Notes under the pieces: generated by a model
Databases searched by the model: none
What the model was told of the DNA's origin: nothing
The model's input: only the letters and a program-made list of their open reading frames with translations
Made by a program: the position numbers and the translations under genes
NCBI GenBank assembly: GCA_016212475.1
Contig: JACRGC010000002.1
Coordinates: forward strand, 1 to 64,000
Direction of reading: 5' to 3'
From: Microcaldota archaeon
GTDB taxonomy: Archaea; Micrarchaeota; Micrarchaeia; Norongarragalinales; SBBD01
DNA length: 64,000 bases
Shown here: positions 18,806 to 52,857 of the stretch, one piece after another
Numbering within the stretch: position 1 is the first letter of the stretch
Layout: every line of letters starts with the position of its first letter

Positions 18806-19432
18806 GTCGGTGATCATATGGAAAAATGGAATAATTTGGCAAGCAGGGAAATTGTTGAAAAGACAATTTCAAAATTGAAGGAGAATGGGATCGATGCATT
18901 TTTTGTCCCAAATGGGGAATCTGCACGGAAAAAGGCGCTCGAATTGATTCCAAAGGGTTCGGAGGTATTTTCCGCCACATCCACTACCAATGCAACAATC
19001 GGGCTAGATGGGGAAATCAACGAATCTGGCAATTATGATTCCGTCCGCAAAAAACTTTACTCAATGGATTCCAAAACCGATGGAAAAGAAATGAGAAAAC
19101 TTGGCGCTGTTCCAGATGTGGTGGTGGGCTCAGTCCATGCAATAACGCAGGATGGGCAACTTGTAATTGCCTCGGCAACCGGCTCACAGCTCCCGGCATA
19201 TGCGTACGGGGCGGGAAAAGTGATCTGGATTGCCGGATCCCAAAAAATCGTTGCTAATTTGGATGATGCCATGACGCGCATTTATCAGCATGTTCTTCCG
19301 CTTGAATCCGAACGAGCAAAAAAAGCCTACGGCGTAGCCGGAAGCAATGTTTCAAAGCTTCTGATTATAAATAAGGAATTCCAGCCCGCAAGGATGCACT
19401 TGATTATAGTCGACGAGAAGCTGGGATTCTAA
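18779..19432 (+). CDS. LUD domain (LutC/YkgG-like) protein; start probably 18818
   Basis: SATSTTNATIGLDGEINESG and VIASATGSQLPAYAYGAGKVIWIAGSQKIV. Confidence 0.85.
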   Translation: MSNIIYPILVGDHMEKWNNLASREIVEKTISKLKENGIDAFFVPNGESARKKALELIPKGSEVFSATSTTNATIGLDGEINESGNYDSVRKKLYSMDSKTDGKEMRKLGAVPDVVVGSVHAITQDGQLVIASATGSQLPAYAYGAGKVIWIAGSQKIVANLDDAMTRIYQHVLPLESERAKKAYGVAGSNVSKLLIINKEFQPARMHLIIVDEKLGF

Positions 19433-19534
19433 TTATACCCCTAATTTGCCTCTTTTTATTTTTTTCTTTTTTTCCTCCCTAATCGATTTCCCCTAACCAA
19501 AATCGTATTATAGCCTCCTTGCCATTAGTTTTCC

Positions 19535-20458
19535 ATGGCAATTGAGATTGGCTGGATTGGGCAAATTGAATCAAAATACGGCGAGGATGCCGCATATCGG
19601 TCGGCAAAACTTTTGATCCACAGTATTCGGTCAAAATCAAAAATAATGGCGGCAATAGACCTTCATGGGAAGAGGGCAATTGAGATATTTGTTTCAGTTT
19701 CCAAAAAAAGATATGCAGCAAAGTATTCCGTTTCCTTAGCTGCTGAATTGATGCTGGGCTTCAAAAAAGGGATTGATGTTTTGGAGAAATCCCCGGAAAA
19801 ATCAATCCAGCTTATTAGGAAATTCAAGGATAATGAAGGGGATGTCAAAACCATGGTTTCCCTTCTTGCAAAAGTGAAGCCGGACCAATTCGCTTACCTA
19901 AACAACCCCCGGCTGGTGCGTGATTCCGTCCAGGTTTTAAGCAAATTCGGGCTCGATGGGCACAATGCGATAAAGGCCATTCCTCAAGAATCCATAGCTG
20001 CAATTGCAAAATGGGGTACCCCTGCATTGAAAATTGTGCAGTTATATGGAAAAACCGGAATCGATGCAATAAACAGCTCTAGTTTTCCCCATTTTCTAAA
20101 ACTCGTAAAGGAGCACCGGATTCGGTTAACAAAAGGCGATCCGCACGCAATTTTAAATTACCGGCGTGGCGAAAAAAGCAAAAAACCCGGCTATTTCAAT
20201 TTCAGCGCCGGTTATTACCGTAAGGAAAATACTCCGCACAGGCTGGCATTTGCAATCAATTCATTATCGATGCATTATTGGGCGGAAAAAAGGGGCATTA
20301 AAATTGCCCAGAAGCGGGAAAATACCGTCAAGGAAAACGAGCACATTTCAAACATCCTAGTGGGCCCAAATCTTAACCATCTAAAGCCACCATCCAAACT
20401 CAATAGTCGAAAGCAAATTTCCGAACATGGAAAACCTATATCGACAGTATTTGCCTAA
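19535..20458 (+). CDS. Hypothetical helical protein
   Basis: 307 aa ORF. Confidence 0.6.
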   Translation: MAIEIGWIGQIESKYGEDAAYRSAKLLIHSIRSKSKIMAAIDLHGKRAIEIFVSVSKKRYAAKYSVSLAAELMLGFKKGIDVLEKSPEKSIQLIRKFKDNEGDVKTMVSLLAKVKPDQFAYLNNPRLVRDSVQVLSKFGLDGHNAIKAIPQESIAAIAKWGTPALKIVQLYGKTGIDAINSSSFPHFLKLVKEHRIRLTKGDPHAILNYRRGEKSKKPGYFNFSAGYYRKENTPHRLAFAINSLSMHYWAEKRGIKIAQKRENTVKENEHISNILVGPNLNHLKPPSKLNSRKQISEHGKPISTVFA

Positions 20459-49713: not shown

Positions 49714-49997
49714 CGCCTTGGCCGGGATTTCCTTGCCTGAAATTGGCGGAGCCGCAAAATCCTTTCTTTGGCGGAGCCACACGCCTTTCAATCAAAACTA
49801 TTTTTGATGAACCTTTTTTGAAAAAGGTTCAAAGAAAGGCAAGGCATTCGGACCCGGGTCAAGGGCTGTTTGTTAAACCGTTTTCTTCGATTCGAAAAAA
49901 CTCACTTCCTTTTCTTTTTCCGAAGCGCTTTTTCTTTTCGAGAAAAGAAAAAGGTTTAGCGACAAGCCCCTATGCTGGACCACTACACTACCAAGGC
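49714..49997 (-). tRNA. tRNA-Asp(GTC) with two introns (37/38, 92 nt, 49868-49959; 59/60, 119 nt, 49728-49846)
   Basis: Mature: GCCTTGG TA GTGT AGTGGTCCA GCAT A GGGGC TTGTCG^A GCCCT TGAC CCGGG TCCGAA^T CCCGG CCAAGGC G (73 nt). Intron 1 has a canonical BHB: TTGT/ACAA central helix, CGC and ACA bulges, TAAACC/GGTTTA inner helix. Confidence 0.88.
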
Positions 49998-50566: not shown

Positions 50567-50869
50567 TCCCGCAGGCCAGAATTCCAGAATTTAATGAATT
50601 CGCCACAAAAACGTTTTCTTTTGTAGCGACCCTACTTTTCTTTTCGAAAAGAAAAGCCGGGTCGTTTGAACTGGCAACCGTCTGATATCTGGCAGGCGAT
50701 TCGACTTCATGTGAAGTCAGCCGAACTACAGTTTCGTCATACCCTTTCTTTTTTTCCAAGGTTAGCGCATACGCAAAGGGCAAATTCCCTTTTTCTTTTC
50801 CGAAGCGCTTTTCTTTTTTGGGAAAAAGAAAAGGTTTGCAGACGCTCAGCCAGATTGAGCTACTGCGGG
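50567..50869 (-). tRNA. tRNA-Tyr(GTA) with three introns (30/31, 106 nt, 50733-50838; 37/38, 39 nt, 50687-50725; 59/60, 84 nt, 50581-50664)
   Basis: Mature: CCCGCAG TA GCTC AATCTGGCT GAGC G TCTG^A CTGTAG^A TCAGA CGGTT GCCAG TTCAAA^T CTGGC CTGCGGG A (74 nt). All stems pair; C1-G72 and A73 are typical of archaeal tRNA-Tyr; TATA-like TTTAAAAATATC upstream. Confidence 0.85.
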
Positions 50870-50989
50870 ATAGTATTCATTTGCAGAAGGATATTTTTAA
50901 ATGTATCAAATATGCCCTCGGATTTTGCCGCTTAATTCTTATCCTCCCCGTGCGTTTTTTTGGTTAAGTTTATAAATACTTTATGAGTA

Positions 50990-52622: not shown

Positions 52623-52857
52623 GCAGGGGTGGCAGAGCTTGGTCAAATGCGCAGGGCTTAGGTGAGCCTTTTTCTTTCACGAAAGAAAAAGCTTCGGGAA
52701 AAAGAAAGGTTTCTTAGAAACCCTGTGCCTTAGGGCTGCGAGGGTTCAAACGCCTTGCCTTTCTTTTGTAAAAGAAAGGCGTATGGCGCCGCCAAAGAAA
52801 ACAAATTAGCGGCTCCGCCGATTTTGTTGGCAAGGCATGAAAATCCCTTCCCCTGCA
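52623..52857 (+). tRNA. tRNA-Leu(TAG) with two introns (37/38, 57 nt, 52663-52719; 59/60, 93 nt, 52751-52843)
   Basis: Mature: GCAGGGG TG GCAGAGCTTGGTCAAATGC G CAGGG CTTAGG^A CCCTG TGCCTTAGGGCTGC GAGGG TTCAAA^T CCCTT CCCCTGC A (85 nt). TATA-like TTAAAAATAT upstream, T-run downstream. Confidence 0.87.

What the first reader, a model, noticed from the sequence alone, without database searches (positions are those of the whole stretch)
50567..50869. tRNA-Tyr in four exons with a 7-nt exon holding the anticodon
Intron 1 (30/31) has a BHB-like site: central CGTC/GACG, bulges TG^C and AA^A. Intron 3 has central TTCA/TGGA with bulges AA^C and AT^T. Both cuts reconstitute the consensus exactly (TCTGA/TCAGA stem, TTCAAAT T-loop). 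The second exon is only ACTGTAG (50726-50732). The 30/31 and 37/38 cuts interfere with each other's outer helices, so an order of removal may be required.
Basis: seen in the sequence. Interest (0 to 1): 0.85.

Follow-up and report, generated by a model that had tools for sequence, protein, structure and literature searches.

The report
Archaeal tyrosine tRNA with three introns
A tiny archaeon keeps its only detected tyrosine tRNA gene in four pieces separated by three removable inserts, two of which are swollen by a small repeat that has spread through the tRNA genes of its relatives; chopped-up archaeal tRNA genes are known, but the repeat spreading through them is the more interesting part.

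Summary
Window 50567-50869 (minus strand) is a tRNA-Tyr(GTA) in four colinear exons (31, 7, 22, 14 nt) with introns at 30/31, 37/38 and 59/60 (106, 39, 84 nt). Spliced, ARAGORN calls it tRNA-Tyr; two sister genera hold orthologues with the same exon 2 and the same 30/31 and 37/38 introns. The host is a micrarchaeote with an ARMAN-type epsilon2 splicing endonuclease, the enzyme type known for relaxed bulge-helix-bulge sites. Archaeal tRNAs with three introns, and introns so close that one must leave before the next site forms, are already described, so this is a new member of a known kind. It sits in or beside tRNA genes at 16 of 17 sites in this genome and at about 26 of 29 sampled sites in relatives, sometimes next to duplicated tRNA halves. 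Intron 3 and the swelling of intron 1 are absent from the sister genera. The same genome has a tRNA-Ile(TAT) that reads as six exons (five introns), and an RtcB ligase gene with a 32-nt splice-like insert. All splicing is inferred from DNA.

The parts
50839..50869 (-). tRNA-Tyr exon 1 (nt 1-30), CCCGCAGTAGCTCAATCTGGCTGAGCGTCTG
   Evidence: same exon in G001 and G002 with 2 changes each
50733..50838 (-). intron 1 at 30/31, 106 nt; 20 and 17 nt in the sister genera
   Evidence: central helix CGTC x GACG conserved in all three
50792..50833 (-). dispersed pyrimidine/purine hairpin element inside intron 1
   Evidence: copies at C1:3594, C17:19330, C6:49908; pattern searches
50726..50732 (-). exon 2, ACTGTAG (nt 31-37) with anticodon GTA
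   Evidence: identical in G001 and G002
50687..50725 (-). intron 2 at the canonical 37/38 site, 39 nt
   Evidence: a 37/38 intron is present in the relatives' tRNA-Tyr genes read
50665..50686 (-). exon 3 (nt 38-59)
50581..50664 (-). intron 3 at 59/60 in the T-loop, 84 nt; absent in G001 and G002
   Evidence: central helix TTCA x TGGA 4/4
50615..50656 (-). dispersed hairpin element inside intron 3 (core of GACCC-GCTTTTC..GAAAAGTA-GGGTC-GCTACAAAAGAAA)
   Evidence: 90% identical copy in a T-loop intron at C12:65142; copies beside tRNA 3' ends in G002
50567..50580 (-). exon 4 (nt 60-73), TCTGGCCTGCGGGA, discriminator A73
50892..50901 (-). TATA-box-like TTTAAAAATA 23-32 nt upstream of the tRNA (inferred promoter)
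   Evidence: sequence
49714..49997 (-). neighbouring tRNA-Asp(GTC), three exons (49997-49960, 49867-49847, 49727-49714), introns 37/38 (carries the element) and 59/60
52623..52857 (+). neighbouring tRNA-Leu(TAG), three exons (52623-52662, 52720-52750, 52844-52857), introns in the anticodon loop (carries the element) and T-loop

Best explanation
This is the functional tRNA-Tyr gene of a micrarchaeote. One precursor is transcribed from the minus strand; the epsilon2 splicing endonuclease cuts at a relaxed bulge-helix-bulge site at each of three introns, and RtcB joins the ends to give a normal tRNA-Tyr(GUA). BHB 1 and the anticodon stem needed for BHB 2 exclude each other, so introns 1 and 2 are most likely cut one after the other. 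The 37/38 intron is old, the 30/31 intron is shared with two sister genera, and the 59/60 intron is newer. Introns 1 and 3 grew by, or from, a small hairpin repeat that spreads preferentially in and beside tRNA genes. Shown: sequence, conserved exons and sites, repeat distribution, presence of endonuclease and ligase genes. Inferred: expression, cutting, order, and mobility of the repeat.
For: Spliced exons form a tRNA-Tyr with archaeal identity features C1-G72, A73 and GUA (identity rules from general knowledge). Orthologues in G001 and G002 share exons, the 30/31 site (CGTC x GACG) and the 37/38 site, but their intron 1 is 17-20 nt and intron 3 is absent. Register test over 27 introns and over 21 T-loop introns. 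Endonuclease: 401 aa, E=4e-127 to ARMAN-2 EndA 4FZ2; the printed alignment keeps Y236, H251, K282 and the loop lysine K161 named in PMC6379350. RtcB gene present. Exclusion of BHB 1 and the anticodon stem in three species. Element: 18 matches in this genome against 0 for the reversed pattern, 16 of 17 distinct sites in or touching tRNA genes; about 140 matches in 25 of 60 relatives, reversed control 1, about 26 of 29 sampled sites tRNA-linked.
Against: No RNA data. The central helix of BHB 2 is 3/4 here and in G001 and G002. Outer helices of BHB 1 and 3 are short, so the sites are relaxed at best. Unconstrained folding of the full precursor does not find BHB 1 or BHB 3. The RtcB gene is itself interrupted, so the ligase also depends on an inferred splice.
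Confidence: 0.93

Rival explanations
1. The gene is a decaying pseudogene wrecked by repeat insertions, and the working tRNA-Tyr lies in the unassembled ~8% of the genome.
For: Two introns carry a dispersed repeat; the assembly is 91.6% complete; partial tRNA copies beside the repeat exist elsewhere in the genome (Gln).
Against: Every exon base is compatible with a functional tRNA, all stems pair, and each cut has a BHB in register; other tRNA genes of this genome look the same.
Confidence: 0.04
2. The introns leave in no fixed order: the endonuclease tolerates hairpin-only or 3-bp sites, so the competition of BHB 1 and the anticodon stem has no consequence.
For: Epsilon2 and (alpha-beta)2 enzymes cut relaxed motifs (PMC6379350); either intermediate can form the other site.
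Against: The two helices share nucleotides 27-28, so at least the two sites cannot be complete at the same time.
Confidence: 0.45
3. The hairpin repeat is not mobile DNA but a structural module selected in long tRNA introns, reached by convergence on pyrimidine/purine tracts.
For: The hairpin suits an intron core, and low-complexity tracts arise easily; no Y1 transposase was found in this genome.
Against: Copies up to 90-94% identical lie in different tRNA genes, flush with tRNA 3' ends and beside partial tRNA duplications, and in antisense in at least three sampled loci.
Confidence: 0.3

Closest known systems
Multi-intron archaeal tRNA genes (Thermoproteales, ARMAN-1/2, others; PMC4033280, PMC8450103)
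   Same: Several BHB introns per tRNA, up to three, at canonical and other positions; iterative removal because sites overlap
   Different: Different lineage; here two of three introns carry a dispersed element, and another gene of the genome (tRNA-Ile) reads as five introns
ARMAN-2 epsilon2 tRNA splicing endonuclease (4FZ2)
   Same: Three-unit single chain, catalytic Y/H/K and loop lysine conserved, 401 versus 395 aa in the solved chain
   Different: Activity on these substrates not tested
tRNA intron transposition in Thermoproteales (Fujishima 2010, as summarised in PMC4033280 and PMC4090602)
   Same: Near-identical intron sequence in unrelated tRNA genes at several positions
   Different: Here the shared unit also lies outside introns, after tRNA 3' ends and beside duplicated tRNA halves, in several families of Micrarchaeota; original paper not read, so not compared in detail
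Mobile-element model of tRNA gene disruption (Caldiarchaeum tRNA-Thr, PMC3293823)
   Same: Intron gain tied to an insertion flanked by a duplicated tRNA fragment
   Different: There a 1.8-kb recombinase-coding element; here a non-coding unit of about 45-120 nt

Membership tests
BHB-intron archaeal tRNA gene with multiple introns | Exons in order on one strand reconstitute a tRNA | tested here: met
BHB-intron archaeal tRNA gene with multiple introns | Central helix with 2+1 nt bulges at each intron | tested here: met
   introns 1 and 3 4/4, intron 2 3/4; outer helices weak, so relaxed type
BHB-intron archaeal tRNA gene with multiple introns | Splicing endonuclease and RtcB ligase in the genome | tested here: met
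   (RtcB interrupted by a 32-nt insert)
BHB-intron archaeal tRNA gene with multiple introns | Excision shown on RNA | not testable with these tools
   no transcript data
Epsilon2 (ARMAN-type) splicing endonuclease | Fused three-unit chain of about 390 aa, catalytic Tyr/His/Lys, loop Lys161 | tested here: met
   alignment to 4FZ2 read against residues named in PMC6379350
Split or permuted tRNA | Pieces on separate transcripts or in altered order | tested here: not met
   all four exons colinear within 303 nt
Group I intron | Conserved catalytic core | tested here: not met
   no Rfam match at gathering score, and up to E=1 only a sub-threshold microRNA hit on the other strand
tRNA intron transposition | Similar introns in different tRNA genes of one genome | tested here: met
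   Tyr intron 1 versus Asp intron 1 (84%), Tyr intron 3 versus the C12 T-loop intron (90%)
IS200/IS605-type non-autonomous element | Partner Y1 transposase in the genome | tested here: not met
   PF01797 absent from the held assembly

The most novel reading that the evidence does not exclude
Micrarchaeota carry a family of tiny non-coding mobile hairpins that home to tRNA genes, enter at the D-loop, anticodon arm or T-loop or just after the 3' end, sometimes with duplication of part of the tRNA, and survive because the permissive endonuclease removes them as introns; this has pushed some tRNA genes beyond the known limit of three introns.
Probability: 0.45. Interest if true: 0.78.

Novelty: new member of a known kind. 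Interest (0 to 1): 0.55.

Why it matters
It adds a clean three-intron tRNA in Micrarchaeota, with sister genomes that show which intron is old, which is younger and how one grew. If the repeat is mobile, it gives a testable answer to how archaeal tRNA introns arise and spread, a mechanism described as unknown in PMC4090602. It also shows that the tRNA finders used here miss many tRNAs in such genomes.

Tried and rejected
Split or permuted tRNA (exons colinear). Group I or other Rfam family (none). A second tRNA-Tyr elsewhere (none detected). Unconstrained folding to read the splicing order (misfolds even the mature tRNA); replaced by folding with the tRNA body fixed, which shows exclusion but no order. 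The repeat as a sense-strand RNA triplex or switch: weakened by antisense copies. Y1 transposase as the mover: none in the assembly; one tyrosine-recombinase gene exists but nothing ties it to the repeat. Rfam on the non-tRNA copies: nothing.

Full report
What is there. On the minus strand of 50567-50869 the exons CCCGCAGTAGCTCAATCTGGCTGAGCGTCTG, ACTGTAG, ATCAGACGGTTGCCAGTTCAAA and TCTGGCCTGCGGGA join to a 74-nt tRNA that ARAGORN names tRNA-Tyr(gta). The three introns are 106, 39 and 84 nt, at 30/31, 37/38 and 59/60. ARAGORN and Rfam at gathering score see nothing in the whole window.

Comparison. The host is a micrarchaeote (the nearest endonucleases come mostly from Candidatus Micrarchaeota assemblies). 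Both held genomes of its family, G001 and G002, carry the same gene with exon 2 ACTGTAG unchanged, a 30/31 intron of 20 and 17 nt ending GACGAA, a 37/38 intron, and no T-loop intron. More distant relatives have only 37/38, or 37/38 plus a T-loop intron (G022, G030), so T-loop introns recur. Thus 37/38 is old, 30/31 is family-level, and intron 3 and the swelling of intron 1 are specific to this genome's lineage among the genomes seen.

Splice sites. A single rule fits: the four exon bases ending two bases before the cut pair with the four intron bases ending two bases before the 3' cut. For Tyr this gives CGTC x GACG (4), CTGT x CCAG (3) and TTCA x TGGA (4). Over 27 introns of 13 tRNA genes the mean is 3.52 of 4 in register and at most 1.74 when slid by 1-3 bases; 16 versus 0 perfect helices. 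Boundaries of the Asp, Arg and one Pro intron were shifted by 1-2 nt after an earlier run, so that part is mildly circular; the Tyr boundaries were fixed by orthologues. Over 21 T-loop introns from several genomes: 76 of 84 pairs in register, at most 48 slid. Outer helices are short, so the sites are of the relaxed type.

Machinery. The genome has one splicing endonuclease chain of 401 aa matching ARMAN-2 EndA (4FZ2) over its length, E=4e-127; the alignment keeps Tyr236, His251, Lys282 and Lys161, the catalytic and loop residues named in PMC6379350. That enzyme type is reported to cut relaxed sites. RtcB is present.

Order of removal. Bases 27-28 lie in BHB 1 and in the anticodon stem that frames BHB 2. 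With acceptor, D and T stems held, BHB 1 and the anticodon stem share the probability when both introns are present (0.31/0.47 here, 0.37/0.47 and 0.78/0.13 in the sisters); the stem reaches 1.00 without intron 1, and BHB 1 reaches 0.64-0.78 without intron 2. So the sites exclude each other, but no order is shown. Sequential removal for this reason is already described for archaeal tRNAs (PMC8450103), as is the maximum of three introns (also PMC4033280).

The repeat. Intron 1 and intron 3 each contain a pyrimidine tract, its purine complement, a short spacer and a further purine tract (CTTTTCTTT..AAAGAAAAG..AAAAGAAA). A slightly looser pattern occurs 18 times in this genome and never reversed. 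Of 17 distinct sites, 16 are in or touching tRNA genes: introns of Tyr (two), Asp, two Leu, Ile (three), Pro (two genes), a Ser-like gene, the C12 T-loop intron, the 3' flanks of His, Ala and Arg, and next to a duplicated 5' part of Gln. In 60 relatives the stricter pattern gives about 140 matches in 25 genomes, reversed control 1; by my reading of the flanks about 26 of 29 distinct sampled loci are tRNA-linked, at least three in antisense. In G002 two copies stand right after a tRNA 3' end and are followed by a second copy of the tRNA's T-loop-to-3' part; in G001, G011 and G014 copies stand beside duplicated tRNA 5' parts. This resembles the mobile-element model of PMC3293823 on a much smaller scale. 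Mobility itself is inferred.

Wider fragmentation. The tRNA-Ile(TAT) at C17 (L154) reads as six exons with five introns at 9/10, 29/30, 37/38, 53/54 and 59/60, helices 3, 4, 4, 4, 4 of 4, and is called tRNA-Ile(tat) when spliced; G001 and G002 have only 29/30 and 37/38. The two papers read here state a maximum of three for archaea. The RtcB gene carries a 32-nt frame-breaking insert before DINCG; removing it gives a 480-residue open frame, and its ends obey the same pairing rule 4/4, which would make the ligase depend on its own reaction.

Verdict. The finding is real and correctly read. As a three-intron tRNA it is a new member of a known kind; the tRNA-directed repeat and the five-intron tRNA-Ile are the parts that deserve follow-up.

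Noticed in passing
own genome C17 about 19300-19725 (L154 from 1366): tRNA-Ile(TAT) that reads as six exons and five introns (9/10, 29/30, 37/38, 53/54, 59/60), with a 6-nt exon TTCAAA; three introns carry the repeat. Sister genera have two introns.
   Followed up: partly
own genome C17:50332-51668 (L181, L182): RtcB ligase gene broken by a 32-nt insert just before DINCG; the ends fit the BHB pairing rule 4/4 and removal restores a 480-residue frame. A possible mRNA intron in the ligase that splicing needs; relatives not checked.
   Followed up: partly
window 49714-49997 minus and 52623-52857 plus: tRNA-Asp(GTC) and tRNA-Leu(TAG), two introns each, missed by ARAGORN and Rfam.
   Followed up: yes
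L056, L057 (G002), L015 (G024): Repeat directly after an intact tRNA 3' end followed by a second copy of the tRNA 3' part, like an attachment-site duplication.
   Followed up: partly
L151 (own C14:79093), L117, L118, L125: Repeat next to duplicated tRNA 5' parts (Gln here, with its upstream region; similar in relatives, three tandem 5' parts in G001).
   Followed up: partly
L069, L070, L073, L087, L139, L155 and others: A second hairpin type (GACnn..GGGGG..CCCCC..nnGTC) close after many tRNA 3' ends; terminator or another element.
   Followed up: no
L119 (G024): A repeat copy between two copies of the start of a protein gene (ATGTTACCGAACATGAATCCGAAACAAATGG..), a non-tRNA site.
   Followed up: no
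L140, L141 (ends of own contigs C3 and C5): Identical repeat-bearing sequence at two contig ends, the only non-tRNA site in this genome; the contigs may join there.
   Followed up: no
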